A stretch of 34,342 bases of DNA from Okeania sp. SIO3B5. GTDB lineage: Bacteria > Cyanobacteriota > Cyanobacteriia > Cyanobacteriales > Microcoleaceae. The position numbers and the translations under genes are program-made. Location: contig NZ_JAAHHG010000060.1 of NCBI RefSeq assembly GCF_010692555.1, forward strand, positions 1 through 34,342. Direction: 5' to 3'. The notes beneath the pieces were generated by a model, which searched no databases, was not told the DNA's origin, and saw only the letters and a list, made by a program, of their open reading frames with translations. This document shows positions 7,698 through 34,342 of this stretch, piece after piece. Within the stretch, counting starts at the first letter, position 1. Every line of letters starts with the position of its first letter.

Positions 7698-7747
7698 TTT
7701 TTACTGATTTTATAGGGCTATGCTCTAGGGAATAGGGAACTTTCAAC

Positions 7748-8388: not shown

Positions 8389-8487
8389 ACGGGGATTCCT
8401 ACCGAGCCTAAGCTCCTCGGTGGGTTGACGTCTCACAGGCTGCTGCTACCAGATGCGGTAGTCTTACACTTGCCTCCACGTCCGTTT

Positions 8488-8538
8488 TTTGCTCCGCGTT
8501 CCCTTGCGCCTTTCAGCGGCGCGGGTTCGGTGCGCTTT
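8488..8538. repeat. 51-bp in-frame GC-rich insertion in tnpB
   Basis: On the minus strand AGCGCACCGAACCCGCG and following bases, ending GGGAACGCGGAGC, interrupt the expected ETK-NGRGGK junction of TnpB and add 17 codons. It is far more GC-rich than its surroundings and does not shift the frame. Confidence 0.55.
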
Positions 8539-8585
8539 TTTGTCTCCGAATGCCCTCGGGCGACTAATATATTTATCGCTGCGTT

Positions 8586-8609
8586 TGCCTCCTGCGGAGG
8601 AGCTTCGCT
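8586..8609. repeat. 24-bp in-frame palindromic insertion next to the TnpB RuvC III motif
   Basis: The minus strand reads AGCGAAGCTCCTCCGCAGGA and then GGCA, adding SEAPPQEA between DRDV and NAAINIL, which are contiguous in TnpB proteins. The CTCCTCCGCAGGAGG core is nearly palindromic and related to the block at 2333. Confidence 0.7.
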
Positions 8610-9186
8610 TACGTCTCTATCGTGTTTTGTGCCACAGTTTAGACACTCCCACTCTCGCACCTTAAGGTCTAATTTTCCACCTTTAAAGCCACAATTTGAG
8701 CAAACTTGAGAGGTCGGTTCCCAACGACTAATTACTCTAAAATCACGACCATATTTTTCAGCAATTCCATCTAAGAATGTCCGGAATTGTCTCCAACCTA
8801 AATCTGAAATTGCTCTGGATAATTTACGGTTTTTTACCATACCAGAAACATTCAAGTCCTCTAAAACAACTGTTTGGTTTTCACGAATTATTTTAGTAGA
8901 TAATTTATGTAGAAAATCAGTTCTTGTATCTTTCAGTTTGGCATAGAATTTAGCTACTCTAATCCTGGCTTTTTCATGCCTTTTTGACCCTTTAGTTTTA
9001 TGAGATAATGACTTACTTAACTTTCTTAATTTCTTAATTCGTTTCTTTAGTGGTTTTGGTGCATCAATCTTTGTACCGTCACTGAATGTAGCAAAGGTTT
9101 TAATACCTAAATCTATACCTACTGAATTATCAGTTTTAGGTAAGATTTCTGGTTGTATTTCTACTACAAAACTTAAGAAATATCTA

Positions 9187-9214
9187 GTAGGGGCGATTCG
9201 CGAATCGCCCCTAC
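9187..9214. repeat. 28-bp perfect palindrome inserted in tnpB
   Basis: GTAGGGGCGATTCG at 9187-9200 is followed by its exact reverse complement to 9214. It adds about ten codons (CRGDSRIAPT) between VTVIKD and RYFLSF without changing frame. Its GC content is well above its neighbours. Confidence 0.85.
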
Positions 9215-9297
9215 AATCTTTGATTACTGTTACTGATGATGGAGCAGTAGGTAACTCTCTTGACCATACAATTTTCAGCTTTCCAATTTTGGCGCTT

Positions 9298-9741
9298 CTA
9301 AACTTTATGTTGACCAATTTTAAATCCTCCCTTTGTGAACCTAGCAGTTTGCTTTGACTTTCTACTTTTAAATCGCGGAGCGTTGCGAGGAACGAAGCAA
9401 TCTGGAGGTCTAATCGGTCTACCTTTTCTCTGACCTTTAGTTGATTTGAAAAAGTTTTGATAAGCCTGATTTAAATCATTTAAAGATTGCTGCAATGGTA
9501 TGTTAGAGACTTCTGACAACCATTCTCTTTCTTCAGTCTTTTTAGCAGATGTAATAAAAAGCTTTTGTAGTTCTGAATTATTAGGTTTCTTTTCTGCTGA
9601 TTTATACTTCTGTTGGGAGTAAGCTAGACTATCATTCCAAACCACACGGACACAGCCGAATAGCTTGGCTAATCGGTATTTTTGTCCCGGCGTTGGATAG
9701 ATACGATACTTAAATCTAGCTTTCATAATTTGACGCATCAA
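9298..9741 (-). pseudogene. tnpB: tnpB, N-terminal part, frameshifted
   Basis: These 147 codons begin MMRQIMKARFKYRIYPTPGQ and contain the TnpB N-terminal motifs CVRVVWNDSLAY and SNIPLQQSLNDLNQAYQNFF. A 27-bp in-frame extra segment (DCFVPRNAP) separates RPIRPP from RFKSRKSKQTARF, which are normally adjacent. The frame ends QHKV-stop at 9298, overlapping the C-terminal half by 20 bp in another frame. Together the halves cover a whole TnpB, so the gene was inactivated by a small indel near 9300-9317 unless that indel is a sequencing error. It likely started at the MKARFKYRIYPT methionine, the usual TnpB start. Confidence 0.85.
9376..9402. repeat. 27-bp in-frame insertion in tnpB
   Basis: On the minus strand GATTGCTTCGTTCCTCGCAA followed by CGCTCCG adds nine codons between PP and RFKSRK. 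The word GATTGCTTCGTTCCTCGCAA is a recurrent interspersed-repeat word in cyanobacterial genomes (from memory). Confidence 0.6.
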
Positions 9742-13404: not shown

Positions 13405-13492
13405 GGTAAGCTTTTTTCACCACCTACGACCTACAACCTTCTTTAAATATTTAATTAATTTTTATTTGTATTCATATAAAAAGGGGTTAACA

Positions 13493-14860
13493 GTGGAAAT
13501 TTCTCTTGATAATTTGTGGAACCAAGTTTTAGAAAGATTGCAATTGCAATTAAGCCGACCTACTTTTGAAACATGGATTAAAACAGCTAATGCCCAACAA
13601 CTAGAAAATAACTGTTTGGTAATTTGTACACCTAACCCTTTTGCTCGAAATTGGTTACAGAAATACTATGTAAAAACTATTGCTGATGTTGTACATGATA
13701 TTCTTGGTCATCCTGTAGAAATTTACCTAACTACGACAGTAGGAGAAAGTACGGGTAAAGATAATTCAGAACCTATATGGTCGGAAAATAAGGTTGCCGA
13801 TCTTTCAGAAAGTTTATCTAGTCAAAAGCCTAAACCAGCAAATCTGAATCTGAAATATATGTTTTCTAGGTTTGTGGTTGGTCCTAATAATCGTATGGCT
13901 CATGCAGCTTCTTTAGCAGTAGCTGAATCTCCTGGACGAGAGTTTAATCCTTTATTTTTATGTGGTGGAGTAGGTTTAGGAAAAACTCATTTGATGCAAG
14001 CTATCGGTCATTATCGTTTGGAGATTTTGCCTGAGTCTCAAATTTTTTATGTTTCTACGGAAAAGTTTACTAATGATTTAATTGTCGCTATTCGTAAAGA
14101 TAGCCTCCAAAGTTTTAGAGAACATTATCGAACTGCTGATGTTTTATTGGTAGATGATATTCAATTTATTGAGGGTAAAGAATATACTCAAGAAGAGTTT
14201 TTTCATACTTTTAATACTTTGCATGAAGCTGGCAAACAAGTAGTATTAGCTTCTGATAGACCTCCTAATCAAATTCCTAGTTTACAAGAACGTCTTTGCT
14301 CTCGGTTTTCTATGGGATTAATTGCTGATATTCAAGCTCCCGATCTGGAAACTAGGATGGCAATTTTACTGAAAAAGTCTGAGTATGAAAATATGGTTTT
14401 GCCTAGGGATGTAATTGAGTATATTGCAACTAGATATCCTTCAAATATTCGGGAGTTGGAAGGTGCTTTGACTAGGGTTGTTACTTATATTTCTATTTCA
14501 GGTTTGCCGATGACTGTGGAGAATGTCGCACCTATTTTAAATCCACAAAATGAAAAATTAGAGGCATCTCCAGAAGCAGTTATTAAGGCTGTTTCAGAAG
14601 TTTTTAATGTGTCTATAGAGGATTTAAAAGGAAGTTCTAGAAAACGAGAGATTAGTTTGGCAAGACAGGTTGGAATGTTTTTGATGCGACAACATACTGA
14701 TTTAAGTCTGCCAAAAATTGGGGAAGTTTTTGGTGGAAAAGATCATACAACTGTTATATATAGTTGCGATAAAATTGCCCAGCTACAAAAGAATGATTTA
14801 AACTTAGGCCAAATTCTCAGACAGTTGAGCGATCGAATTAATTTTTCCAGTCGTCGTTAG
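13493..14860 (+). CDS. dnaA: Chromosomal replication initiator protein DnaA
   Basis: DnaA binds DnaA boxes, oligomerises with ATP at oriC and opens the duplex. Domain I starts [25 protein letters not shown]. After a variable linker, the AAA+ domain has Walker A ([13 protein letters not shown], about residues 157-169), Walker B ([14 protein letters not shown], about 217-230) and the RFSMGL sensor region. Domain IV ends with the box-binding signature [15 protein letters not shown] near residue 415. I chose the GTG at 13493 (455 aa, starting MEISLDNLW). It follows AAGGGG at a suitable distance and matches the usual cyanobacterial N-terminus; the frame is open upstream to a TTG at 13466. Six consensus DnaA boxes and one near-match lie just downstream. 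Confidence 0.93.
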
Positions 14861-15727: not shown

Positions 15728-16891
15728 ATGAAATTAACTTGTACTCAAAGTGACTTAAATAGTAATCTTTCTCTGGTAAGTCGCGCAGTTCCTTCTCGCC
15801 CTACTCACCCAGTATTGGCAAATGTTTTATTAATAGCAGATGTAGAAAATCAATGCTTAGAATTAACAGGGTTTGACTTAAGTTTAGGTATTCGTTCAAA
15901 TTTTCCAGCAGTTGTAGAAACAGGTGGGAGTTTTACTTTACCTGCCAAATTATTTAATGATATTGTCTCCAGATTACCAGACGGTAATATTACTATTGAT
16001 GATGATGAAGGGGAAGCGATCGCTACTCTTACTTCTACATCTGGACGTTATGAAGTCCGAGGTATGGGAGGGGAGGAATATCCAGAGTTACCAAAGGTGG
16101 AAGAGGGGGAGGTTATACATTTACCACCGGAAGCTTTAATTAATGGTTTAAAGGGAACTCTGTTTGCCACAAGTCCTGATGAAACAAAACAAGTGTTAAC
16201 TGGAGTACATTTAAAGGTACAAAAAGATGGTTTAGAATTTGCAGCAACTGATGGTCATAGATTAGCAATTGTTAAGACTGAAAGTGTGACACCAGAGGAT
16301 GAGTCAGAAGTAGAAGAAATTGAAGAAATTGAAGAGTTTGAAGTAACAATTCCTGCAAAAGCTTTACGAGAAATTGAACGAATGATTGGAATGGATCAAT
16401 CATCTGAAGCTGTTGCTTTGAGATTTGATGAAGGTCAGGTAATTTTTGAGCTAGGAGAACAATGTTTAACTAGCAGAAAATTGGAGGGTCAATATCCAGC
16501 TTACGGACAATTATTACCTGATAAGTTTACTAATCAAATTAATGTAGATAGGAAACAATTTTTAGGAGCAGTGGAAAGAATTGCTGTTTTGGCTGACCAG
16601 AAAAATAATATTTTGAAGTGTTCTATTGATAGTGTTAATCAGGAGATTTCTTTATCTGTAGATGCTCAAGATGTTGGTAGTGGTAGAGAGTCTATGGCGG
16701 CACAAATTTCTTCTGATGAACCGGAAGAAATTGCTTTTAATGTTAAGTATTTGATAGAGGGATTAAAGGCTATTCCTTCAGCTTCGGAGATTTCTATTCA
16801 GTTAAATACTGCTACAAGTCCGGTGGTTTTAAATCCATTGGGTGGGGTGAAAATGACTTATTTAATTATGCCTGTTCAGTTGAGAAATTAG
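15728..16891 (+). CDS. dnaN: DNA polymerase III sliding clamp, beta subunit
   Basis: This 387-aa protein forms the ring-shaped dimer that tethers DNA polymerase III to DNA. It begins MKLTCTQSDLNSNLSLVSRAVPSRPTHPVLANVLL, the standard clamp start. The three clamp domains follow, with LTGFDLSLGIRS, FAATDGHRLAIVK and the C-terminal LNPLGGVKMTYLIMPVQLRN. The C-terminal MPVQLRN corresponds to the conserved MPMRL. An acidic insert (about residues 190-205, EDESEVEEIEEIEEFEV) in the second domain is a cyanobacterial-type feature. Length is normal. It lies about 140 bp downstream of the DnaA boxes and is co-oriented with dnaA. Confidence 0.95.
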   Translation: MKLTCTQSDLNSNLSLVSRAVPSRPTHPVLANVLLIADVENQCLELTGFDLSLGIRSNFPAVVETGGSFTLPAKLFNDIVSRLPDGNITIDDDEGEAIATLTSTSGRYEVRGMGGEEYPELPKVEEGEVIHLPPEALINGLKGTLFATSPDETKQVLTGVHLKVQKDGLEFAATDGHRLAIVKTESVTPEDESEVEEIEEIEEFEVTIPAKALREIERMIGMDQSSEAVALRFDEGQVIFELGEQCLTSRKLEGQYPAYGQLLPDKFTNQINVDRKQFLGAVERIAVLADQKNNILKCSIDSVNQEISLSVDAQDVGSGRESMAAQISSDEPEEIAFNVKYLIEGLKAIPSASEISIQLNTATSPVVLNPLGGVKMTYLIMPVQLRN

Positions 16892-19910: not shown

Positions 19911-20889
19911 GAATTTTCTCTACTATTGCTTATAGAGCAATCATTATTCATTTTGTGAAGCACCATAACTTGAGAGGTGAGTAGGGAATTTTCTCTACTA
20001 TTGCTTATAGAGCAATCATTATTCATTTTGTGAAGCACCATAACTTGAGAGGTGAATATGGGATTTTTTCTACTATTGCTTATAGAGCAATCATTATTCA
20101 TTTTGTGAAGCACCATAACTTGAGAGGTGAGTAGGGAATTTTCTCTACTATTGCGTATAGAGCAATCATTATTCATTTTGTGAAGCACCATAACTTGAGA
20201 GGTGAGTAGGGAAATTTTTCTACTATTACGTATAGGGCAATCATTAATTCATTTTGTGAAGCACCATAACTTGAGAGGTGAGTAGGGAAATTTTTCTACT
20301 ATTGCGTATAGAGCAATCATTAATTCATTTTGTGAAGCACCATAACTTGAGAGATGAATAGGGGAATTTCTCTACTATTGCTTATAGAGCAATCATTGAT
20401 TCATTTTGTGAAGCACCATAACTTGAGAGATGAATAGGGAAATTTTTCTACTATTGCGTATAGGGCAATAATTGATTCATTTTGTGAAGCACCATAACTT
20501 GAGAGATGAATAGGGGAATTTTTCTACTATTGCTTATAGAGCAATCATTGATTCATTTTGTGAAGCACCATAACTTGAGAGATGAATAGGGAAATTTTTC
20601 TACTATTACGTATAGAGCAATAATAGTTTCATTTTGTGAAGCACCATAACTTGAGAGATGAGTAGGGAAATTTTTCTACTATTGCGTATAGAGCAATAAT
20701 AGCTTCATTTTATGAAGCACCATAACTTGAGAGGTGAGTAGGGAAATTTTTCTACTATTGCGTATAGAGCAATAATAGCTTCATTTTATGAAGCACCATA
20801 ACTTGAGAGGTGAGTAGGGAAATTTTTCTACTATTGCTTATAGAGGAATAATTGATTCATTTTATGAAGCACCATAACTTGAGAGGTGA
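19911..20889. repeat. 13-copy tandem array, 75/76-bp unit, two hairpins per unit
   Basis: TACTATTGC-type words begin at 19921, 19996, 20071, 20146, 20221, 20297, 20373, 20449, 20525, 20601, 20677, 20753 and 20829. The first four steps are 75 bp, the rest 76 bp. Each unit has ATTGC-TATAG-GCAAT-type and TTCATTTT(G/A)TGAA hairpins, then CACCATAACTTGAGAG. In late copies the second stem becomes perfect (GCTTCAT-TTT-ATGAAGC). There are no variable spacers, so it is not CRISPR. An open frame on the minus strand is just the 25-codon period of the early units. The array fills the whole gap between the ATPase and TPR genes. Confidence 0.95.
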
Positions 20890-23840: not shown

Positions 23841-26800
23841 ATGGTAAATGAATTAAGGGAAGGAGATAATCTAGTTCCAGTTAACTATGACAGTTTACTA
23901 CAACAAATTTTAAAGAAATTACCAGAACAAAATCTGTTTAAAATATCGAGCGATAGCCGACGTTTACTGATAAATATTGATGAGATAGCTGCATCTATTG
24001 CTACTACCAATATTCAAAATCCTTTAAGCACTACGAAGGGGGTTCGTGTTGCTAGTGTAAATTTTGTAAACCGAGAAAAATTTCTGACTCAAATACAAGA
24101 AATAAAAGACTATTTGATAACTAATTTAGAGTCTACAGAAGGAATAGGAGATATTGCTAGTTTTGTCGATAGTTTAATTGTGAATTTAACAGATTTTCAG
24201 GGGCGTGCTAATAAGCTAGGTTTAGCTTATCCTTTTAACGAAAGCTATACAGAATTGCAAAAACAAGAGTTGATTTTAGATTCTCAACTTCCTGGTAGTA
24301 ATTCTTTACTGAAATTCCATAAACTGACAATTACAGTGGGAAATATTGGGGAGTTTCAGTATCAGCTAGAAGCAGCAATTAAACGGAATATTCAAAACAA
24401 TTTTGATTCGGACGATCCAGAAGATATAGAAGATGTTTATAATCTTTTAGAAAAAAAAGTTGAGGATAAAAATTCAGATTTTAACCAACTACAAAGACTT
24501 GTAGATGAAGAAACGTTAGGGAAACTGAAAAAGGAAGCAAAAATTATATATCTAGAACATTTATTAGCGAATATTGAGACTAATGATAAGTTAGGAGTTA
24601 TTTATCTGACAGACTTAATTCGGCGCTTGAAGTTAATTGAGCAATATATTAATGATGAGTCTAAAGCGGATGGAGATTATGATGTTTCTTATGGTGGAGA
24701 AAAATTTAATTACCGAGATATTTTTGCTCGTGCTGAAGTTTTTGATGCACTGCCAATTATTCCAATTATTGATGGTAATTTGGGAGAAACTACAAATAGA
24801 GAAACGGGAGAAACTCAATTTGTTTTGGGTTTGAAAATGAAATTAGATGGCAAAGTACAAGCTAGGAGTGGAAAAGAAGTATTTGATTATAATTTGGAGA
24901 TAATTACTCAAAATAATCAGGAGGAAAATGAGGAATTAAAGGCTAATCCAGACAAAAGGAAAACTTGGGCAAGAAAAATATTAACACGAGCATTTTTATA
25001 CTATTTTGTATTTTCTTGCCCAGACTCAAATGCAAAAAATTATCATTCTGATGATGAGTTAACTTATAAGCCTATATCTAAATTTGACGAGCAAGTTTTG
25101 CCTGTATTGAAAGGAGATAATGATGCTGAAAAGGATAGTATTTTTCGGGGGTTGGTAAAAGGATTTGAGAAATATGGAGTCAAGGAAAAAATCAATAGGT
25201 TAAGGGGTTTAATCAGAAACTTTTTAGAGAGAGGGAAAAAATTACCTAACTGCATAGAAAATCGTCAAATTTGTATTAATAAACGAATTCTCAAAACTGA
25301 TACTGAGAGTCTGTTTCAAGGTAGTTTTTTTCATAATGATTTGAAAGAAAATTATAAGAAATGTCTGAGGTATATTTTTCTGGTTGAGGAAGGAACAAAT
25401 AATCGAGCGGTATGTCAGCTACCTGCTAGTATCAAGATAGAAGATGTCCGTTATTTTGAGGGAAGCGATCGCCAAAATTTTCAGTGGGAATATGATGTAG
25501 AAGGAATTAAAACATTACCTGTAATGTGGATACCTGATACAGATACTTGTCGGCGAATTTATCACGAAAATTTTGTGCAGAAAGGATATAAGTTGATTCT
25601 GTTTAGTTACAATAATCAACGTTTAAATCCAGAGAAAAATCAATTAAATTCGACTCAAGCATTTATCTATCGTTTTACTTGGATATTGTTATCTTATCTT
25701 TGCCTACATATTTTATTAGAGCAATATTCAGAAACAGAAAAAGAATTATTTATTCCCATGGTGCGACTCCATGAGGGAACCCACGAAAATCCTTTTCCTG
25801 CTGAAAAGTTTCTGGCTAATCTTGCCAAAACATTAGCTTTTATTTTCAGTAAAAAATATCGGTGTAACTCTCAAGGTTTCCGGGTTAATAAACCACCTAC
25901 TCCTTTCAATATTAGAAATGGTTTAAACTCCTTATACTCTGTACTGCCTAAAAAGTTTAGCTTCAATGATAATTCTGACTCTACTTTATTAGATAAACTG
26001 GCAATTATTATTGTCTCTAGCAAACTAAGTGATTCTAGAACAGGTAGTCAAAACCGTAAGGATAGAATTGCTAATTTGTTCGGGGAAGTAATAAGTATTC
26101 AAAGGTTAGAAAATGGCAGTGTAAAAATTCAACCTTTGACAACATTTTTTGATAACTATCAACTCCGAAATATGTATCAGGAACCACCTATTTTAATGGA
26201 TACAGTCAGCGAACTTTGCTTACAAGGATATCGACATTTTTTATATGTGGCACAAGCACCTTATACCAGTACATTACATATTACTCAACAAGAAGAAGAA
26301 AGATTATATTTTATGTCACCTACTATTATTAACACGATGAAGCAAAGCCGAGATGACATTAAAATATATCCTGTACTTTTTGATAAATATTATGTACACA
26401 AATTAAAATTAAAAAAACAGGAGGTGAAATCTTTGTATATTCAAGATACTCGCCAATTAATGAATATTGCTGAAGATAGTAGTCAAAAATCAGTGGTATT
26501 TTTCAATTTGTTTAATAGCATTTCTGTGGGTGGGAAAAAAACTGAGGATGAGCGATTTTATAATGGTGTTATTTCCTATTCCACTCTGTTAGGAAAATAT
26601 TATTCCGGGGTGATGGATGATGAGGATATTCGACAAGGTTTAGTTTATGATAGTGGATTGAAAAATGACATTCTTCAATATTTGACATTTTTCCATTTTT
26701 CCCGGTATGAGAAACAAGAGAAAGATAGTAGTAATTTAAGTTTAAAGTTAGATCCTTATGAAAATATTATTGGTGATAAAGCGTTGGGAAGTTTAGCAAT

Positions 26801-26888
26801 TTTTCCTCAGATGACAGAAAGTATTGAGTTTAATACTTTGGCTTTTTTGACAGAGGTTAATGATGCTGTTGATGGAGTTGATTTTTAA
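23841..26888 (+). CDS. Unrecognised 1015-aa protein, first gene of a three-gene candidate system
   Basis: I do not recognise this family. The protein starts MVNELREGDNLVPVNYDSLL. The first 300 residues are mostly helical and acidic. Around 400-480 lies a basic helical region with a cysteine pair (PNCIENRQICINKR). The C-terminal third alternates strong hydrophobic strands and polar loops: LDKLAIIIVSSKLSDSR (about 716-732), NLFGEVISIQRL, GYRHFLYVAQAPYTSTLHIT (about 795-814), IKIYPVLFDKYYVHKL and SVVFFNLFN. This could be an RNase H/Piwi-like alpha/beta fold, but the carboxylate set is not clear and I do not claim catalysis. No membrane segment or signal peptide is obvious. No P-loop is seen. It is followed by a tandem array and then by nuclease-like and helicase-like genes on the same strand. 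Confidence 0.7.
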   Translation: MVNELREGDNLVPVNYDSLLQQILKKLPEQNLFKISSDSRRLLINIDEIAASIATTNIQNPLSTTKGVRVASVNFVNREKFLTQIQEIKDYLITNLESTEGIGDIASFVDSLIVNLTDFQGRANKLGLAYPFNESYTELQKQELILDSQLPGSNSLLKFHKLTITVGNIGEFQYQLEAAIKRNIQNNFDSDDPEDIEDVYNLLEKKVEDKNSDFNQLQRLVDEETLGKLKKEAKIIYLEHLLANIETNDKLGVIYLTDLIRRLKLIEQYINDESKADGDYDVSYGGEKFNYRDIFARAEVFDALPIIPIIDGNLGETTNRETGETQFVLGLKMKLDGKVQARSGKEVFDYNLEIITQNNQEENEELKANPDKRKTWARKILTRAFLYYFVFSCPDSNAKNYHSDDELTYKPISKFDEQVLPVLKGDNDAEKDSIFRGLVKGFEKYGVKEKINRLRGLIRNFLERGKKLPNCIENRQICINKRILKTDTESLFQGSFFHNDLKENYKKCLRYIFLVEEGTNNRAVCQLPASIKIEDVRYFEGSDRQNFQWEYDVEGIKTLPVMWIPDTDTCRRIYHENFVQKGYKLILFSYNNQRLNPEKNQLNSTQAFIYRFTWILLSYLCLHILLEQYSETEKELFIPMVRLHEGTHENPFPAEKFLANLAKTLAFIFSKKYRCNSQGFRVNKPPTPFNIRNGLNSLYSVLPKKFSFNDNSDSTLLDKLAIIIVSSKLSDSRTGSQNRKDRIANLFGEVISIQRLENGSVKIQPLTTFFDNYQLRNMYQEPPILMDTVSELCLQGYRHFLYVAQAPYTSTLHITQQEEERLYFMSPTIINTMKQSRDDIKIYPVLFDKYYVHKLKLKKQEVKSLYIQDTRQLMNIAEDSSQKSVVFFNLFNSISVGGKKTEDERFYNGVISYSTLLGKYYSGVMDDEDIRQGLVYDSGLKNDILQYLTFFHFSRYEKQEKDSSNLSLKLDPYENIIGDKALGSLAIFPQMTESIEFNTLAFLTEVNDAVDGVDF

Positions 26889-26929
26889 TGGGAGGTGGGA
26901 AAAATAAGTTTTAAATAAATAGTAAGAAT

Positions 26930-28160
26930 ATTTCAAAAAGTGGAAAATTTTGAAGATATCTATATCTATATTTAAGAGTCAGAAAAAATCTGCTTTTACC
27001 TGACATATCTCTACTAAGTAGACTCTGATATTCTCAGGGAAAATCTCTGAATTTTCGGTAAAAGTCAGAAAGTGGAAAATTCTGAGGATATCTATATCTA
27101 AGAATCAGAAAAAATCTGCCTTTAGCTGAGAAACTTCTCTCAACTAGACTCTGACATTCTCAGGGAAAATCTCTGAATTTTCGGCAAAAGTCAGAAAGAG
27201 GAAAAATTCCCAATTTTCGACAAAACTCAGAAACTGGAAAATTCTGAGTATATCTATATTTATGAGTTAGGAAAAATTTACCCTTCTCTAGAAATGTCTC
27301 TCCAAAGCAGACTCCTAAATTCAAGAGAAATTCCCCAATTTTGGCAAAATTCAGAAACTGGAAAACTCGGAGTATATCTATATATATGAGTTAGGAAAAA
27401 TTTACCCTTCTCTAGAAATGTCTCTCCAAAGCAAACTCCTAAATTCAAGGGAAATTCCCCAATTTTCGGCAAAATTCAGAAACTGGAAAACTCGGAGTAT
27501 ATCTATATATATAAGTTAGGAAAAAATTATCCTTCTCTAGAAATGTCTCTCCAAAGCAAACTCCTAAATTCAAGGGAAATTCCCCAATTTTCGGCAAAAT
27601 TCAGAAACTGGAAAATTCGGAGCATATCTATATATATTGAGTTAGGAAAAATTTACCCTTCTCTAGAAATGTCTCTCCAAAGCAAACTCCTAAATTCAAG
27701 GGAAATTCCCCAATTTTCGGCAAAATTCAGAAACTGGAAAACTCGGAGTATATCTATATATATTGAGTTAGGAAAAATTTACCCTTCTCTAGAAATGTCT
27801 CTCCAAAGCAAACTCCTAAATTCAAGGGAAATTCCCCAATTTTCGGCAAAATTCAGAAACTGGAAAACTCGGAGTATATCTATATATATAAGTTAGGAAA
27901 AAATTATCCTTCTCTAGAAATGTCTCTCCCAACTAGACTTGGAAATTCTGAGGAAAAATTCCCCAATTTTGGCAAAACTCAGAAACTGGAAAACTCGGAG
28001 TATATCTATATATATGAGTTAGGAAAAAATTATCCTTCCCTGAGATATCTCTCCAAAGCAGACTCCTAAATTCAAGTAAAATTCCCCCAATTTTCGGCAA
28101 AACTCAGAAAGTGAAAAATTCTGAGTATATTTATATTTATGAGTTAGGAAAAATTTACCC
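26930..28160. repeat. About ten-copy tandem array, unit about 125 bp, inside the three-gene locus
   Basis: The word TGGAAAA(T/C)TC or a close variant begins at 26941, 27073, 27235, 27359, 27484, 27609, 27735, 27861, 27987 and 28112. Steps are 124-126 bp in the regular part; the first two (132 and 162) are irregular and the copies there are more diverged. Each regular unit holds the hairpin AATTTT-CGGC-AAAATT, the phrase TCTAGAAATGTCTCTCCAAA, and a (TA)-rich dyad GTATATCTATATATATGAG. No variable spacers exist, so it is not CRISPR. Where the unit is 126 bp, in-frame open frames of 42-residue repeats appear on the plus strand; their lack of ribosome sites suggests artefact. Confidence 0.92.
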
Positions 28161-28229
28161 TTACTTGAGATAATGTTAATTGAAAAACTTGAGTAATCTA
28201 AAACTACTATCAATCAAAAGGAGAATAGT

Positions 28230-29468
28230 ATGCCAATTGCTGAAAATTTAGGAAGTTTATTTGAAGTGGGATTTAATATTGGGATACTTGCCGATATTCA
28301 ACACCAGAAATATCAAAATTATTTTGGTGATTTATATCATCAAGATTTAGAAAAACTGAAATTACCAACTCTGGTTAGAAAAATCGCAGATGCAGAAAAA
28401 ATATCTGACACAGAGAGTATTAAAAATCTGGAAAGATGGAGTGAATATTTTATCCAGAAAGGATTTATTGCTGGATTAAATTTTTTTCGTGAATATATCA
28501 AGTCAACTGCTTGGAAACTCCACCTCAGAAAACCGGAAATTTTATACTATCAATGTAGCTTTGATGGAGATAATGCTTTTGGTTCTAACCCCAAGGATAG
28601 GCAACAAACAACCAGCAAATTATTATCTCAATTTTTATCTACTGATGTTTTAGATATTCAATTAAACAACTACGTTATCAAGTACCACAAAAAAGGAGAA
28701 TTTTTACAAGCAGATACTTTAATTCTGTTACGTTATCGCAGAGAAATTAGAATTATTTGTGTAGACTTGTCGATATTTTCCATCAAGTCAATGGAAGATT
28801 TATTAGCACTGGATAATATAGAAGTATTGCGCCGAATGTTGATGAGAGATATTAAACATATACGCTCTAAAAGTGTTTTTTCTAAACTGCGAATAGATAC
28901 GGGAGATACTCAGGATTTTGGTTTAGATTTTTCCCCAGATTTAAAACGATATTTTACTGCTTTTAAACGTAAGGATAAGGAAACTACTAAGTTAATTCAA
29001 GCTGGTGCTTATGCTTATAGTTTCTATAATTTTCTGCAAAAAGAGACCGATATATTAGATAACTCTAAGTCATTACTTTTTAATGTAGTGGGATATAGCG
29101 ATGTAGCTGCCGCTAGGCTCCGCCAACGCAACATTAGTTCTCTCTGTTTACAACCAAAAAATATTAATATTCTTGAGACTTGTGCAGAGATTTATCAAAA
29201 TGAACCGAAGGAGCAAGAGATAAAAAATGCCCGTCAGGAAGTTTTGGAAAAAATCAAACTCAATGCTAAAAAAAGTTTTCAAAATGGTAGAAAATTTATC
29301 CAAGAATTATCTGTAGAAAATTTTCAGGAGAAGGGGGATAAAATTACTCCAGTAGTTCATCAAGAAAAAATTGATGGTTTCTTTAATTCAGTAGGAATTA
29401 TCCCAGATGAGTTAGCAAAAAAAAATGGATATTACTCCCAAGTTAACTTTAAGAAATGCTCATGCTGA
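28230..29468 (+). CDS. Unrecognised 412-aa protein with degenerate PD-(D/E)XK-like core
   Basis: I know no named family for it. The start is clear: AAAGGAG lies about 7 nt upstream of ATG 28230 (MPIAENLGSLFEVGFNIGIL). Residues about 155-185 read GEFLQADTLILLRYRREIRI and then ICVDLSIFSIKS. This has the spacing of a PD-(D/E)XK core (D in a strand, then a hydrophobic strand ending x-D-x-S), but the usual E-x-K is D-L-S, so catalysis is doubtful. A lysine-rich helical tail follows. A short GC-rich repeat at 29112-29129 adds AAARLRQRN-type text in frame. The last 44 nt overlap the helicase gene, with an A9 tract at the junction. Role in nucleic acid cleavage or binding is inference. Confidence 0.7.
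   Translation: MPIAENLGSLFEVGFNIGILADIQHQKYQNYFGDLYHQDLEKLKLPTLVRKIADAEKISDTESIKNLERWSEYFIQKGFIAGLNFFREYIKSTAWKLHLRKPEILYYQCSFDGDNAFGSNPKDRQQTTSKLLSQFLSTDVLDIQLNNYVIKYHKKGEFLQADTLILLRYRREIRIICVDLSIFSIKSMEDLLALDNIEVLRRMLMRDIKHIRSKSVFSKLRIDTGDTQDFGLDFSPDLKRYFTAFKRKDKETTKLIQAGAYAYSFYNFLQKETDILDNSKSLLFNVVGYSDVAAARLRQRNISSLCLQPKNINILETCAEIYQNEPKEQEIKNARQEVLEKIKLNAKKSFQNGRKFIQELSVENFQEKGDKITPVVHQEKIDGFFNSVGIIPDELAKKNGYYSQVNFKKCSC
29112..29129. repeat. Short GC-rich interspersed repeat inserted in frame in the 412-aa gene
   Basis: GCTAGGCTCCGCCAACGC is the reverse complement of GCGTTGGCGGAGCCTAGC, a word of a well-spread cyanobacterial short repeat (from memory). It lies in a 33%-GC gene and translates within DVAAARLRQRNI without shifting frame. 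Confidence 0.65.
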
Positions 29469-31998
29469 ATTAATTACAAAAGCTCTGAAAAGTGATAAAA
29501 CTTATGTATTTTTAACAGGTAATCCAGGCATAGGAAAAACAACAGCGATCGCCAACTTTCTCAAATCTCATATTGAAGATGGATTTCTATTATTTTATGT
29601 TAGTCCTCGCACTCAAGTTAATGTCGATTTAATCAATAAGTTTAAGTCTAAAACTGACGAGTCTTTATGCAGCGATAAAATATTTGGTCTCACTACAAAT
29701 TCCATTCTTATTAAAGAAAATAATGGCAAACCTACAGTTAGTTATCATTCCAATCTTCGTCAAGATAATTTCATTAAAAATACTGTCAATTTTACCCATA
29801 AGGGTTTAGTTTCCAAACATCCACAAAAAACTGCCCACAAAAAGTCGCGATTTTACAGAGAAACTCAAGATAATATTAAAGACATTGGGGAAAAAAATGC
29901 AGGAGTTCTCGATAGTATCTGCCAGGGAATATATACAACTATCAATCAAAATATATCTAATAATATTGTCGCTACAGTCTCGATTCAATCTTTAAGAAAA
30001 ACATCAAATGGTGGAGATACTCTAAACCATCTCCGGAAAATATTCAAAGATGCTTATCACCGAAATACAGGTGTGATTCCTGAAAAAATGCAAGAAATTT
30101 CTCAGAGAATAAAGCATATATTCATCATGATAGATGAAGTAACCGGAGATGATAGTGGGGTAAATTTTTTGCATGGAATTAAGGAATTTTTGAAAGATTA
30201 TGATTTGACTAACCCTAAGCTTAAATTTAATACAAAAGTTATTGTTGCTGATGCTTCTATTGTCGAAAAAGAGGTTATTAAACAACACTTATCTCAGACT
30301 TCTCCAGAACCAGACAAAATTTATTTTCGGTCTGTAGGAGCAAATAGCAATTCGCCCATACAAGTAGATAATTTTGACTTTAATAAACAACCAGCAATTG
30401 CTATTAATACTAATTCTTATCCTGCTAGTAGTTTAGATATAACTTATAAAGTTTTCCTCCAATGTTATAAATTTAATGAAGCTAAATTTAAAGATGACAA
30501 TAAGCAGTTAATCAAAACGGTTGAAGCCAATATTTTATCCGATATAAATTATTATTTAGATCATCCCGAATCTAGTCAAATCTTAGTTTATATTCAAGAT
30601 AAACAGAAACTACAAAAATTAATAGACAAAATTAGTAATTCTCGAAAATTTGAACAATATAAAGACTATCTACAAATACACGCTAATTTATCCGATGAAA
30701 AAAAGAGCAAAATTGAAGGATGTAAACAAGACGTCAAAGTTGTATTTATGACATCTTCAGCAAGTCGAGGTTTATCCTTTCCTAAAGCCAAAATAATGTT
30801 AGTAGAAATTCCTAAATTTCAAATAGAAAGAAATTTAATGGAAATCATACAAGTTATCTATAGGGCGCGGGGAGAATATTGGGAAAATAACACAGCAAAA
30901 ACTTTAGATAATCAACCAAAACAAATAACCTTTTATTTGAGCGATCGCGCCATTTATTACCCTCAAGAAGAAAATACATCTCCACAAGACTATGCTGAAG
31001 AAAAAAAATTATCCTTAGCAGAAAGTTTATTAAATATCTGGGATATTTTATTAATTCTCAAATTGTCAATAATGACACGAATAACTGGTGCAGGTAGTTT
31101 AGGAATGAAACAATTTATGATGATTCCTATTGGTGGAAAATCTATTTCTGCTGCTGGAAATACATTTAGTAGTCAAGTGACAAATCTCATTAGAGAGTTA
31201 AAAAATGAACATCGTCGTCATCCTCAAAAACAAACTCTTCAAGATGTTTATACAAGTTTGAGAAAAATTTTTAGCAGTGCAGATTTTGTCTTACTTGAAG
31301 ATGAAAATAAATCTAAAAAATCAGATTCCCAATATCGTTCTTATCTTTCACTGATAGAATCTTTTAACCAAAAATTTTCCCACTATTGTCACCAACTTGA
31401 TAGATTACTAGATTTTGGCAATATCGAAACAGGTTATGTCACAGGCAATTTATTAGTAGTTCCTATTTCTGAACATAGATTAGAAGAAACTTATTTGATG
31501 AAATTAGAATCACAAATTAGACAGTTTGCTAATAATGAATTAGTCGAAAAAATGAAGAAAATTAGCATAAATAAAGATTATCCACCTAATCTCATATCTG
31601 CAATAAAAGGTAGTGTTTTAGAATTTGTTGAATTGCTGAATGGCGATATTAATAGAACCCAATGGTTTGAACAAAATAGTCAAAACTTAGACCAATATTA
31701 TGCTCTACCATTGTTTGTATTGATGAATAGAGAATTGATGAGTGAATATTTTAAGGAGGAACCCGAAGAAGAAGAAGAAACAGAATTTAGAACCCTCTTA
31801 TCCAAATATGTTCATTACCTTTATCCTGCCTATAATACCCTACCCATTGGTAGAAAATATCGAGAATTTCCCTTTATTATTTTTCGTAGCTATAGTTTAG
31901 GAGAAATGCGAGAAAAAATTTATAGCGATCGCTATCTTTTAACTTCCAATGAATTGAATATTCTCAACTTAATTCTTTGTCGAGATGAGAAAATCTAA
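29425..31998 (+). CDS. SF2-like helicase/ATPase of the three-gene candidate system
   Basis: This 857-aa protein starts MDITPKLTLRNAHAELITKA. Motif I is FLTGNPGIGKTTAIANFL (about residues 27-44), and motif Ia-like text is FYVSPRTQVNVDLI. Motif II is the variant FIMIDEVTGDD (about 233-243), and motif III-like text is KVIVADASIVE. The second RecA-like domain has SQILVYIQDKQKLQKL, motif V VFMTSSASRGLSFPKAKIM (about 440-458) and motif VI NLMEIIQVIYRARGE (about 470-483). This layout is that of superfamily 2 translocases or helicases, but the DEVT box fits no subfamily I know. The last 350 residues are helical and unassigned. The ATG lies inside the upstream gene (44-nt overlap), so translation is probably coupled. 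Confidence 0.8.
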   Translation: MDITPKLTLRNAHAELITKALKSDKTYVFLTGNPGIGKTTAIANFLKSHIEDGFLLFYVSPRTQVNVDLINKFKSKTDESLCSDKIFGLTTNSILIKENNGKPTVSYHSNLRQDNFIKNTVNFTHKGLVSKHPQKTAHKKSRFYRETQDNIKDIGEKNAGVLDSICQGIYTTINQNISNNIVATVSIQSLRKTSNGGDTLNHLRKIFKDAYHRNTGVIPEKMQEISQRIKHIFIMIDEVTGDDSGVNFLHGIKEFLKDYDLTNPKLKFNTKVIVADASIVEKEVIKQHLSQTSPEPDKIYFRSVGANSNSPIQVDNFDFNKQPAIAINTNSYPASSLDITYKVFLQCYKFNEAKFKDDNKQLIKTVEANILSDINYYLDHPESSQILVYIQDKQKLQKLIDKISNSRKFEQYKDYLQIHANLSDEKKSKIEGCKQDVKVVFMTSSASRGLSFPKAKIMLVEIPKFQIERNLMEIIQVIYRARGEYWENNTAKTLDNQPKQITFYLSDRAIYYPQEENTSPQDYAEEKKLSLAESLLNIWDILLILKLSIMTRITGAGSLGMKQFMMIPIGGKSISAAGNTFSSQVTNLIRELKNEHRRHPQKQTLQDVYTSLRKIFSSADFVLLEDENKSKKSDSQYRSYLSLIESFNQKFSHYCHQLDRLLDFGNIETGYVTGNLLVVPISEHRLEETYLMKLESQIRQFANNELVEKMKKISINKDYPPNLISAIKGSVLEFVELLNGDINRTQWFEQNSQNLDQYYALPLFVLMNRELMSEYFKEEPEEEEETEFRTLLSKYVHYLYPAYNTLPIGRKYREFPFIIFRSYSLGEMREKIYSDRYLLTSNELNILNLILCRDEKI

Positions 31999-32687: not shown

Positions 32688-34342
32688 GTTAAACTAAGCC
32701 AGTTTGTTACCAAACCGACTCGTCTTCAAAACCGTGCGTGAGACTTTCACCTCACACGGCTCCTCTCTTAAACGTCCCTTGTCATGGGTACATCCCTGCC
32801 TTAATATCAACATATCGTCAACCCATAAATAACCTTCAGGTAAATCCTGTAACTTTGGTTCTGCGTATGTCTTTTTATCTAAGGCAGTTTTAGTATCGTG
32901 GCAATGTCGGTGCAACAATTGTTTGTTCTCATAAGTGTTGTCACCACCTTCAGACCTTGGTTTTATATGGTCAACTTCCAGTAGGTCAGTTGGTCTAAAA
33001 GTTAGTCCACAAAGTGCGCATTTATTCTTTTGTCGCTTTAATAGCGTTGTGACTTCTTTCCTTACGCCTGGATGTTTTCCGATTCTGCTACTCCAATAAG
33101 TCCAGTCACCGTCATAGGGTGATTTATTAGCTTTTACCTTGATGTGCCTTATAATAGGAACATCTGAGTGTTGGTTTAGTATATACCTGCCATCGTTAAG
33201 TACCCAATTTCGGGTTCCGTTGACTTTAGGAAAATACTTTTTCTTTACCCATTTAGCCGACTTATTTGGATGCCTTCTACTTACCCATCTCCATAATCTT
33301 CTCCATAAAAGCATATCCATTTTTCTGAATACTTCTTTACTGACTACGGTGGAAAAGTAGTTAGCCCATCCTCTTATTACCGGGTTTATTTTAGCTATAA
33401 GAGTTTCTGTAGAGGCGGTTTTATATTTGTCAAATGTATCCGCCAGTTTCCGGTAATGAGTTTTAATACTCTCGGAAGATGGTTTAATCAGAGTTTTAAA
33501 TCCTTGTTCGGTTGACTTAACTTTCCATTGCCTGATTGTGAATCCTAACAAGTCAAATCCGGGTTTATTACCTTCATATTCTTCCAGGGTGTGGGCAATT
33601 TTAGTTTTCTCTGGTCTTAGTTCTAATCCTACCTGGTTTAACCATTCCTGTATAACGGTTTTAGCTTGTACCACTACTTTGATGTCTTCATGTAGGATAA
33701 CGAAGTCATCAGCATAGCGTATTAGGGAAAGACTCTGTACTTTATTTTGCCAGCCTATTTGGCGACCATTGGGTCTCTTCATGTCTAGGGTTTTGGCAAA
33801 TTTATTAAGCCTTTCTTCCATACCGTGCAGGGCGATGTTTGCTAGTAAGGGTGATATAACCCCTCCCTGTGGCGTACCTTCCACAGATTCTAGGAATTGA
33901 TTATTGTCCATCACTCCAGACTTTAACCATTGCTTGATTAACCGTCTATATGGGGATTTTCCAATCTTTCCTAGCAGTGCATCATGGTTAATTCGGTCAA
34001 AACATTTAGATATATCAGCATCTAGAACATATTTAGGTTTTTGCTTGATACTACTATAGATGGCCTCTATAGCATCATGTGTTGACCACCGGAAAAGACC
34101 ATAGCTGTTTGGTTCAAAACGTGCCTCCCATTCTGGTTCCATACCTAACTTAACCAAGGCTTGTAATGCACGGTCGTACATTGTTGGGATTCCAAGAGGT
34201 CTCTTTTCATCCGTCCCTGGTTTTGGTATATATACTCTGCGGGTGGGACTTGCTTTAAGGTGGCGTGATGAGAGTAGGTTCACCAAGTTTAATCTTTGTA
34301 TGGGTGTCAAGTTTTTGATTCCATCTACCCCGGCGGTTTTCT
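32688..34342 (-). mobile_element. Group II intron in rpmA, 3' part (5' end outside the window)
   Basis: The 3' end on the minus strand is TAGTTTAAC, ending at 32688 in the required AY. Domain V is visible as GAGCCGTGTGAGGTGAAAGT followed by CTCACGCACGGTTT (about 32739-32772), a 34-nt hairpin typical of cyanobacterial introns. Domain VI follows as GACGAGTCGGTTTG-GTAA-CAAACTGGCTTAGTT. The intron-encoded reverse transcriptase and HNH domain fit the chloroplast-like (CL) class. The intron continues beyond 34342. Confidence 0.92.
32694..34342 (-). CDS. ltrA: Group II intron reverse transcriptase/maturase with HNH endonuclease, 5' end outside the window
   Basis: The frame is open to the window edge, where it reads KTAGVDGIKNLTPIQRLNL, the usual start of RT domain 1. 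So the TTG-started 538-aa frame from 34310 is only part of the protein. RT motifs include VYIPKPGTDEKRPLGIPTMYDR, VLDADISKCFDRINHDALL, TPQGGVISPLLANIALHGME and the catalytic YADDFVILHE. The maturase (X) domain follows with RGWANYFSTVVSKEVF, then the HNH domain (CALCG, LLEVDHIKPRSEGGDNTYEN, HRHCHDTKT). The protein helps the intron splice and retrohome. Its last 30 or so codons (GRLREEPCEVKVSRTVLKTS, ending NKLA) are translated from RNA domains V and VI. The stop is only 6 nt before the splice site. Confidence 0.93.
   Translation of the reverse strand, partial: KTAGVDGIKNLTPIQRLNLVNLLSSRHLKASPTRRVYIPKPGTDEKRPLGIPTMYDRALQALVKLGMEPEWEARFEPNSYGLFRWSTHDAIEAIYSSIKQKPKYVLDADISKCFDRINHDALLGKIGKSPYRRLIKQWLKSGVMDNNQFLESVEGTPQGGVISPLLANIALHGMEERLNKFAKTLDMKRPNGRQIGWQNKVQSLSLIRYADDFVILHEDIKVVVQAKTVIQEWLNQVGLELRPEKTKIAHTLEEYEGNKPGFDLLGFTIRQWKVKSTEQGFKTLIKPSSESIKTHYRKLADTFDKYKTASTETLIAKINPVIRGWANYFSTVVSKEVFRKMDMLLWRRLWRWVSRRHPNKSAKWVKKKYFPKVNGTRNWVLNDGRYILNQHSDVPIIRHIKVKANKSPYDGDWTYWSSRIGKHPGVRKEVTTLLKRQKNKCALCGLTFRPTDLLEVDHIKPRSEGGDNTYENKQLLHRHCHDTKTALDKKTYAEPKLQDLPEGYLWVDDMLILRQGCTHDKGRLREEPCEVKVSRTVLKTSRFGNKLA

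What the first reader, a model, noticed from the sequence alone, without database searches (positions are those of the whole stretch)
23841..31998. Candidate undescribed three-gene system: 1015-aa protein, PD-(D/E)XK-like protein, SF2-like helicase, built around a tandem array
Three large genes of unknown family lie on one strand in accessory-type DNA. The second and third overlap. The third has clear helicase motifs with an unusual DEVT box. The second has a nuclease-like core with D-L-S instead of E-x-K. The first has an alpha/beta C-terminus with strands such as AIIIVSSK and HFLYVAQAPYTS. A large protein with a helicase and a nuclease-fold partner recalls the pPIWI-RE/DinG/REase arrangement (Burroughs, Iyer and Aravind), but the sequences do not look like that family. 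The array between genes 1 and 2 could be a transcribed part. A defence or mobile-DNA-control role is inference.
Basis: partly seen in the sequence, partly recalled or inferred. Interest (0 to 1): 0.86.

Follow-up and report, generated by a model that had tools for sequence, protein, structure and literature searches.

The report
Argonaute-like protein with nuclease-helicase partner
In cyanobacteria and some other bacteria, a hidden Argonaute-like protein sits next to a partner that looks built to unwind and cut DNA, and the pair probably finds and destroys foreign DNA such as plasmids; it matters because it looks like a separate branch of this family that sequence searches miss.

Summary
The three ORFs exist, but they are two genes. 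In 80 of 80 genome-contig loci kept (of 217 found), ORFs 2 and 3 are read as one protein, B: an N-terminal RecB/Cas4-like PD-(D/E)XK-type domain fused to an SF2 helicase. The window copy is broken at an A-run (29417-29425), one base longer than in relatives. ORF 1 (protein A) has no convincing family match, but its predicted structure (pLDDT 84) matches Argonaute/PIWI proteins (Foldseek E 1e-5, probability 1.00; VIA-align Z 11.8 over 347 residues). Two of four guide-5'-end pocket residues are kept (Q678, K704); the catalytic aspartates appear lost. A lies upstream of B in 70 of 73 informative loci, 55 within 300 bp. Among 291 cyanobacterial genomes, all 21 with A also have B. The array is a lineage-specific repeat, not a component. 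Best reading: an inactive Argonaute-like sensor (A) uses a guide to recruit a nuclease-helicase (B) against plasmids or other mobile DNA. It works like DdmDE and ApsAB, but with the nuclease at the opposite end of the helicase and no sequence relationship detected. It is not pPIWI-RE. Many copies sit at conserved chromosomal sites beside housekeeping genes, unusual for defence. Guide, target and function are untested.

The parts
23841..26888 (+). Gene A: 1015-aa protein with Argonaute/PIWI-like predicted fold (MID-PIWI about residues 540-1011), predicted catalytically inactive, with partly conserved guide 5'-end pocket (Q678, K704; K663 and position 667 vary)
   Evidence: AlphaFold2 model pLDDT 83.7; Foldseek and VIA-align matches to Argonautes; conservation over 70 and 22 sequences; omega 0.23 versus L053
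26962..28162 (.). 126-bp tandem array between A and B; lineage-specific variable repeat, not a core component
   Evidence: TRF; only place found in own genome; about 24 copies in L053, fewer in L055, absent from L054
28230..29424 (+). 5' part of gene B: RecB/Cas4-like PD-(D/E)XK-type domain with D162, D179-L-S181, K250, K254, Q257, Y261
   Evidence: Model pLDDT 79.9; VIA-align Z 5.1 to ACE1, lower to MGME1, RecB, RecE, Exo5; residues invariant (179 is D or E) in a 16-row alignment
29417..29425 (+). Run of nine A where the reading frame of B breaks in this copy (true mutation, assembly error or slippage site undecided)
   Evidence: five nearest relatives differ by one base in length and read through
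29425..31998 (+). 3' part of gene B: SF2-type helicase (857 aa from the internal ATG) with a conserved C-terminal region of unknown fold
   Evidence: Pfam Helicase_C E 3e-6; motif residues invariant in 22 sequences; omega 0.21 versus L053

Best explanation
A-B is a two-gene interference system. A is a divergent, catalytically dead Argonaute-superfamily protein that binds a short nucleic-acid guide through its MID pocket and finds complementary foreign DNA. B, a RecB/Cas4-like PD-(D/E)XK-type domain fused to an SF2 helicase, is recruited to the opened target, unwinds it and degrades or nicks it. The likeliest target is plasmid or other mobile DNA. In this window B is split by a frame break, so the copy may be impaired unless slippage or an assembly error explains it. 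Shown here: A-B linkage and co-inheritance, B as one fused protein in relatives, conserved helicase residues. Predicted: the Argonaute-like fold of A. Inferred: guide binding, inactivity of PIWI, recruitment, nuclease activity, target, defence role.
For: Fold of A: 12 Foldseek matches at E <= 0.001, best E 1.1e-5, probability 1.00; 10 are titled as Argonaute, one is a chain of the SPARTA short-Argonaute complex, one (4kpy) has an uninformative title and is, from memory, also T. thermophilus Argonaute. VIA-align: 140 chains at Z >= 8; the 50 rows shown are Argonaute/Piwi/SPARDA entries or AGO2 complexes, plus Med13 (7kpv_D) and one uninformative title (8xih). Pocket: K663 in 54, H at 667 in 61, Q678 in 69 and K704 in 65 of 70 sequences, at -15/-11/0/+26; RsAgo has Y463-K467-Q478-K506, -15/-11/0/+28 (PMC6299218, passages), and the first of my 19 cyanobacterial pAgos has conserved Q459 and K485, 26 apart. 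Q678 stays in 21 of 22 wider relatives. The first RNase H strand has S726 in 70 of 70 where active Argonautes have D. B: nuclease-fold hits; D162, S181, K250, K254, Q257, Y261 invariant in 16 rows; helicase motifs. Linkage: A upstream in 70 of 73 informative loci, median gap 17 bp; A/B distance correlation 0.94 for 65 loci, 0 of 2000 permutations reach it. Co-occurrence: 21 of 21 A genomes have B; 21 of 22 B genomes have A, after dropping two 29-46-residue hits (Fisher 4e-31). Precedent: DdmDE (PMC12409362, passages) and ApsAB (PMC11096173, sections). Some distant-clade copies lie beside DruE-, GajB/UvrD- and HmaC-like genes; plasmid copies.
Against: No profile-profile similarity of A to pAgo or pPIWI-RE, although pPIWI-RE and pAgo detect each other. 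TM-scores are low (0.16-0.23 by query in the first 14 rows), so the match is partial. Two of the four pocket residues are changed, the window itself has F667, and K704 is K in only 9 of 22 wider relatives. The nuclease-type domain lacks the usual lysine; Foldseek found no significant match for it, and an unrelated lipoprotein ties with ACE1 at Z 5.1. Many main-clade copies sit beside pheT/bcp or purQ/trpE/psaD, apparently inherited vertically, unlike most defence genes. Three loci have B without A within about 8.8 kb upstream, and one genome has A and B 330 kb apart. No experiment.
Confidence: 0.62

Rival explanations
1. A-B is a genome-maintenance system of filamentous cyanobacteria, for example clearing R-loops, resolving replication intermediates or separating chromosomes, rather than a defence system.
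For: Among the 80 loci the orders pheT-A-B-bcp and fur-purS-purQ-A-B-trpE-psaD recur (pheT family in 20 loci, bcp 18, fur 15, purQ 15, trpE 14, psaD 14; gene names are mine), pointing to long vertical retention. No match in phage records or the viral contig scan. Omega near 0.2. An Argonaute is reported to help complete replication by decatenation (PMC10269773, start of abstract in search listing).
Against: Patchy: 21 of 291 genomes. Fragments or remnants in G116, G143 and G283, with stops in the first two. Copies on conjugative plasmids and beside defence-type genes in some distant-clade loci.
Confidence: 0.2
2. A-B is a true member of the ApsAB or DdmDE family with rearranged domains, not a separate lineage.
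For: Same two ingredients: Argonaute-like protein plus helicase-nuclease. ApsB has a conserved Y-x3-K-xn-QG-xn-K motif, and A has Q678-G679 and K704. ApsAB-like systems are said to occur in some cyanobacteria.
Against: ApsA and DdmD carry the nuclease C-terminal to the helicase; in B the nuclease-type domain is N-terminal in every relative read across the junction. The A gene precedes B, whereas the ApsAB authors looked for the partner downstream of apsA. No convincing PADLOC or NCBIfam match for 22 A proteins. PDB sequence search with the A and H profiles gave no such hit, though I did not verify that DdmD/DdmE chains or models are in those libraries.
Confidence: 0.25
3. A-B is a pPIWI-RE-type system (RNA-dependent restriction at R-loops).
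For: PIWI fold with an REase-fold domain and a helicase, the combination described by Burroughs et al. (PMC3702460, passages).
Against: PF13032 is not matched by A. In the same 291 genomes pPIWI-RE is found in 6, none of them an A-B genome. Profile-profile comparison negative. Gene order and gene number differ.
Confidence: 0.04
4. The window really carries a functional three-protein version, with nuclease and helicase made separately, or joined by slippage on the A-run.
For: Overlapping ORFs with an ATG right at the A-run; helicase part under purifying selection against L053 (omega 0.21).
Against: 0 of 80 relatives are split there; the nearest relative, 93% identical, is fused. A recent mutation or homopolymer assembly error explains it more simply.
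Confidence: 0.15

Closest known systems
DdmDE (Vibrio cholerae plasmid defence)
   Same: Two genes; catalytically inactive Argonaute-like protein plus SF2 helicase with PD-(D/E)XK nuclease (review PMC12409362, passages)
   Different: DdmD has the helicase N-terminal and the nuclease C-terminal; B is the reverse. No PADLOC match pointing to it. A has a MID pocket pattern; the ApsAB paper says DdmE lacks the MID-like motif.
ApsAB (E. coli antiplasmid system)
   Same: Nuclease/helicase protein plus novel Argonaute-like protein with a QG...K MID motif (PMC11096173, sections read)
   Different: ApsA: helicase then C-terminal D...DVK nuclease, helicase motifs GFGKS/DELH/QAVGRVER; B: N-terminal D...[DE]xS domain, then GNPGIGKT/DEVT/QVIYRARG. 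A is 1015 aa and encoded upstream. Direct sequence comparison not run.
pPIWI-RE triad
   Same: PIWI, REase-fold and SF2 helicase combination (PMC3702460; passages; sections 5, 7 and part of 6)
   Different: Order REase-DinG-pPIWI-RE, three proteins; no sequence similarity of A to six cyanobacterial pPIWI-RE proteins, some cut by locus ends.
Long-B and short prokaryotic Argonautes with nuclease partners; ACE1 Argonaute-associated Cas4
   Same: Inactive PIWI with associated nuclease (PMC6299218, passages); the N domain's best-scoring nuclease match is ACE1
   Different: A is not found by the Pfam Piwi model nor by profile comparison with 19 cyanobacterial pAgos.

Membership tests
Argonaute/PIWI superfamily (A) | MID-PIWI (RNase H-like) fold | tested here: met
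   predicted model, not a solved structure; low TM-scores
Argonaute/PIWI superfamily (A) | Guide 5'-end pocket Y/R-K-Q-K in MID | tested here: inconclusive
   Q and K kept (69 and 65 of 70), first two positions usually K and H; by spacing, not superposition
Catalytically active Argonaute | DEDX tetrad | tested here: not met
   First-strand position is S in 70 of 70 (S, A or V in 22 of 22 wider) and no D at 804/805 in 70; positions placed by pattern
Pfam Piwi (PF02171) pAgo | Sequence-profile membership | tested here: not met
   own genome also negative for PF02171
pPIWI-RE | RNaseH_pPIWI_RE (PF13032) match | tested here: not met
pPIWI-RE | Gene order REase-DinG-pPIWI-RE | tested here: not met
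   A then fused nuclease-helicase
pPIWI-RE | Conserved R and E pair in the beta-sheet extension; DinG Cys-rich helicase | not tested
   Needs model coordinates and a DinG comparison
DdmDE | Two-gene Argonaute-like plus helicase-nuclease | tested here: met
   nuclease assignment of B is by weak fold match and residue pattern
DdmDE | DdmD order: helicase N-terminal, nuclease C-terminal | tested here: not met
   Nuclease-type domain N-terminal in B
DdmDE | Sequence homology to DdmD or DdmE | tested here: inconclusive
   No PADLOC or PDB-sequence hit, but presence of those models/chains was not verified
ApsAB | ApsA: helicase then C-terminal PD-(D/E)XK with D...DVK | tested here: not met
   against the published description
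ApsAB | ApsB motif Y-x3-K-xn-QG-xn-K | tested here: inconclusive
   QG and final K present; the Y-x3-K part was not found at the pocket spacing tested
ApsAB | Sequence homology to ApsA/ApsB | not tested
   ApsA/ApsB sequences not obtained; the paper's supplements were not available to me
PD-(D/E)XK (RecB/Cas4-like) nuclease (N domain of B) | Core fold with D...(D/E)xK active site | tested here: inconclusive
   Fold matches weak (Z <= 5.1); D162, acidic 179, Q257, Y261 kept but S181 in place of K; K250/K254 invariant nearby

The most novel reading that the evidence does not exclude
A founds a separate lineage of prokaryotic Argonaute-superfamily proteins, as distinct as pPIWI-RE or Med13, with its own K-H-Q-K guide pocket. 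Its partner is a nuclease-helicase of inverted layout whose catalytic lysine has moved from the D/E-x-K strand to the helix before Q257. Filamentous cyanobacteria have kept it at fixed chromosomal sites as a standing surveillance system against foreign replicons.
Probability: 0.4. Interest if true: 0.85.

Novelty: new variant of a known kind. Interest (0 to 1): 0.74.

Why it matters
If right, a guide-directed defence lineage has been overlooked because its Argonaute-like protein is invisible to the sequence profiles tried here. It would show that the pairing 'inactive Argonaute plus helicase-nuclease' exists in more than one layout, possibly through independent assembly. It would also give cyanobacteria a candidate barrier to plasmids and engineered DNA. 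The model names residues (Q678, K704, Walker lysine, D162/D179) that make the idea directly testable.

Tried and rejected
Family searches of the three window ORFs in Pfam, PADLOC, NCBIfam and PHROGs gave only generic P-loop/helicase hits for the third and weak unrelated hits for the first. Scans of 22 A members in Pfam, NCBIfam and PADLOC gave only weak unrelated hits; 73 N regions in Pfam likewise (TnsA_C in 4 of 73, best E 0.0076, not pursued). In PADLOC, 7 of 22 helicase members matched mad8 (best E 1.1e-5) and one PDC-S73 (2.5e-5), the window member none; I took these as shared P-loop similarity and did not pursue them. PDB sequence searches with A and N profiles found nothing meaningful; the H profile found SF1/SF2 helicases weakly. 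Foldseek for N gave no significant hit.

Rejected: pPIWI-RE membership; the array as a component; three separate genes as the normal form; a phage origin (no match in 50,697 phage records; in the viral-contig scan 146 stretches matched a pattern and none encoded a relative). The array was checked for being a genome-wide repeat: only its own place was found in the genome. Rfam found only group II intron models in the window. Paper searches for an earlier description of this pair listed none that I recognised as this pair, but only the listings, and passages or sections of six papers, were seen, only open-licence PMC papers are held, and the ApsAB supplements, said to list some cyanobacterial proteins, could not be opened; so absence from print is not shown.

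Limits: one search used 28 relatives chosen by hand, of which 25 had gaps over 60 bp and were scanned. Loci are related, so counts are not independent. Distant-clade proteins could not be given to structure prediction. In one search the 70 loci include some with A cut by a contig end or split, and one (L085) with A 5.7 kb upstream. PADLOC hits come from 10 large neighbours picked by me, with no control set: 6 had defence-type or candidate models (two DruE-like, one GajB/UvrD-like, HmaC, PDC-M26A, weak PtuB), 2 only a generic or weak repeat model, 2 none.
Full report
WHAT IS THERE. The window carries gene A (23841-26888, 1015 aa), a 126-bp tandem array (26962-28162), and two overlapping ORFs of 412 and 857 aa (28230-29468, 29425-31998), all on the + strand. 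The window is a whole 34-kb contig of an 11-Mb genome. The nearest named relative of the locus is Okeania sp. SIO2B3, 93-94% identical in protein.

TWO GENES, NOT THREE. Of 217 genome contigs stretches encoding a relative of the helicase, the best 80 were kept. In 80 of 80, the nuclease-like and helicase parts are read in one frame across the junction. 74 of 80 are single ORFs of at least 1180 aa; of the other six, four are cut by contig ends and two (L072, L132) are broken elsewhere in the helicase. In the plasmid and GTDB loci, 26 of 27 are likewise fused; L028 has lost the region beside a transposase. In the window the frame breaks in a run of nine A (29417-29425), where the five nearest relatives have a stretch one base shorter and read through. 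All parts are under purifying selection against L053 (omega 0.23 for A, 0.19 for the nuclease part, 0.21 for the helicase, by a simple counting method). The break is therefore recent, a homopolymer assembly error, or a slippage site; I cannot tell which.

A AND B BELONG TOGETHER. Of the 80 loci, 70 have A upstream on the same strand. Seven contigs begin within 614 bp of B, too close to tell, and three (L104, L116, L120) have about 8.8 kb upstream without A. So A is upstream in 70 of 73 informative loci, with a median gap of 17 bp; 55 of the 70 gaps are at most 300 bp, the largest 5.7 kb. For 65 loci with both proteins near full length, distances among A proteins and among B proteins correlate at 0.94; 0 of 2000 permutations reach that. 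In 291 genomes of the same class, A was found in 21 and B in 24. All 21 A genomes have B. Of the three B-only genomes, two show only 29-46-residue P-loop hits and one (G283) a 131-residue fragment. Leaving out the two P-loop hits, Fisher's test gives 4e-31; genomes are related, so this overstates independence. Of 20 full-length A rows, 19 lie beside B; in G014 the two are about 330 kb apart on one contig. G116 and G143 hold decayed remnants with stops.

WHAT A IS. None of 22 A proteins has a convincing Pfam, NCBIfam or PADLOC match. An AlphaFold2 model from 70 aligned sequences has mean pLDDT 83.7 and pTM 0.80. Foldseek against the PDB gave 12 matches at E <= 0.001: 10 titled as Argonaute (Thermus thermophilus, best E 1.1e-5, probability 1.00), a chain of the SPARTA short-Argonaute complex, and 4kpy, whose title is uninformative (recalled as T. 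thermophilus Argonaute). TM-scores were low (0.16-0.23 by query in the first 14 rows), so the match is partial. VIA-align gave Z up to 11.8 (7kx9, 347 residues, rmsd 4.4), with 140 chains at Z >= 8. The 50 rows shown are Argonaute, Piwi or SPARDA entries or AGO2 complexes, apart from Med13 (7kpv_D, Z 11.6; chain identity from PMC12477606, passages) and one entry titled only 'protein-DNA complex' (8xih). Sequence profiles do not see this: comparison with 19 cyanobacterial pAgos and with six cyanobacterial pPIWI-RE proteins was negative, also with a merged 88-sequence MID-PIWI alignment. The positive control, pPIWI-RE against pAgo, gave E 0.0017 and 0.0008; the unrelated helicase profile gave nothing with A, as expected.

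GUIDE POCKET AND ACTIVE SITE. RsAgo anchors the guide 5' end with Y463, K467, Q478 and K506 (PMC6299218, passages), that is -15/-11/0/+28. A has K663 (54 of 70), H at 667 (61 of 70; F in the window copy), Q678 (69 of 70) and K704 (65 of 70), at -15/-11/0/+26; in the first of my cyanobacterial pAgos the conserved Q459 and K485 are also 26 apart. In the wider 22-sequence set Q678 is Q in 21, G679 is G in 22, and K704 is K in only 9. The first RNase H strand has S726 (70 of 70; S, A or V in the 22) where active Argonautes have aspartate, and the fourth-strand positions 804-805 are A/S and Q/K/A in the 70. A is therefore probably inactive. These placements rest on pattern and spacing, not on superposition.

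WHAT B IS. The N-terminal part (model pLDDT 79.9) has no significant Foldseek match. Among re-aligned candidates its best-scoring nuclease is ACE1, an Argonaute-associated Cas4-family protein (9iac, Z 5.1, 132 residues, rmsd 3.9), followed by MGME1, RecB, McrBC, RecE, Cas4 and Exo5 at Z 2.0-4.3. An unrelated lipoprotein ties at Z 5.1, so the fold match alone is weak. The residue pattern is better evidence: in a 16-row alignment reaching Proteobacteria, D162, S181, K250, K254, Q257 and Y261 are invariant, and position 179 is D or E followed by x-S instead of x-K. A migrated catalytic lysine (K250 or K254) is my inference. The C-terminal part is an SF2-type helicase: Helicase_C E 3e-6, with GxPGIGKT, DE, RGxSFP and QxxYRxRG residues invariant in 22 sequences.

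WHERE IT LIVES. Related copies lie in filamentous and other cyanobacteria, in one Ktedonobacter genome (L129), and on plasmids of cyanobacteria, Acinetobacter, Cupriavidus and Acetobacter. The six plasmid records matched by A itself are cyanobacterial and all typed conjugative. Among the 80 loci the orders pheT-A-B-bcp (pheT family in 20 loci, bcp in 18) and fur-purS-purQ-A-B-trpE-psaD (fur 15, purQ 15, trpE 14, psaD 14) recur (gene names are mine from the sequences, not from an annotation call). This suggests vertical retention and speaks against a purely mobile defence cargo. In the distant clade, the neighbours I picked include DruE-like, GajB/UvrD-like and HmaC-like proteins (ten proteins, no control set). 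No homologue of the helicase was found in phage records or by the viral contig scan. In the window, dnaA and dnaN lie about 9 and 7 kb upstream of A.

THE ARRAY. The 126-bp array occurs in the window (about 10 copies), L053 (24 copies) and L055 (about 6 by length), and not in L054 or the other relatives scanned (25 of 28 chosen). L057 has a different array that repeats the 5' end of gene B. The window array has no other copy found in its genome. It is a lineage-specific variable repeat.

HOW IT MOST LIKELY WORKS. By analogy with DdmDE, where inactive DdmE uses DNA guides to find plasmid DNA and recruits the DdmD helicase-nuclease (review PMC12409362, passages), and with ApsAB, where an Argonaute-like protein with a MID motif and a helicase-nuclease eliminate plasmids but showed no activity against eight phages (PMC11096173, sections): A binds a guide and target, B is loaded, unwinds and cuts. 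The linkage is shown and the folds are predicted; guide, target, recruitment and cutting are inferred.

MEMBERSHIP. By predicted fold A belongs to the Argonaute/PIWI superfamily. It fails the Pfam Piwi and pPIWI-RE sequence tests. The pair works like DdmDE/ApsAB, but B has the nuclease-type domain N-terminal to the helicase where DdmD and ApsA have the nuclease C-terminal, so I do not file it as a member. Direct comparison with ApsA/ApsB and DdmD/DdmE sequences was not possible, and the ApsAB authors mention some cyanobacterial members that I could not inspect; a rearranged member of that family remains a live rival.

Noticed in passing
window 13466-14860 and 15728-16891: dnaA and dnaN (Pfam): the locus may lie near the chromosomal origin.
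   Followed up: no
window 32688-34310 (- strand): Group II intron with RVT-GIIM-HNH maturase and intron model matches.
   Followed up: no
window 19912-20889: Second tandem array, 76-bp unit, about 13 copies, 94% matches, just upstream of a TPR-repeat protein.
   Followed up: no
window 8433-9317: OrfB_IS605/TnpB-like ORF lying between the secF-like and secD-like genes.
   Followed up: no
L057 5786-7295: Three extra tandem copies of the first 53-73 codons of B between A and B, suggesting repeated duplication around the start of B; L104 also has a short extra match to the start of N upstream of B (7614-7715).
   Followed up: partly
L098, L102, L103, L123: Tandem A-B-A arrangements (L102: A-B-A-B, cut by contig end); the two A copies differ (44% and 46-47% identity to the window A), so possibly two guide-binding paralogues share one B.
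   Followed up: no
G014 C1:118127-121108 and C1:451085-453613: A and B present but about 330 kb apart, the only full-length A not beside B among 20 rows.
   Followed up: no
L104, L116, L120: B intact but no A within about 8.8 kb upstream: orphan effectors or distant A.
   Followed up: partly
window about 29103-29126 (N residues about 292-299): The window nuclease part carries about eight extra residues (VAAARLRQ) absent from L053 and the other rows of the alignment.
   Followed up: no
PADLOC scan of helicase members: 7 of 22 members of the helicase alignment match mad8 (best E 1.1e-5), perhaps only through the P-loop region.
   Followed up: no
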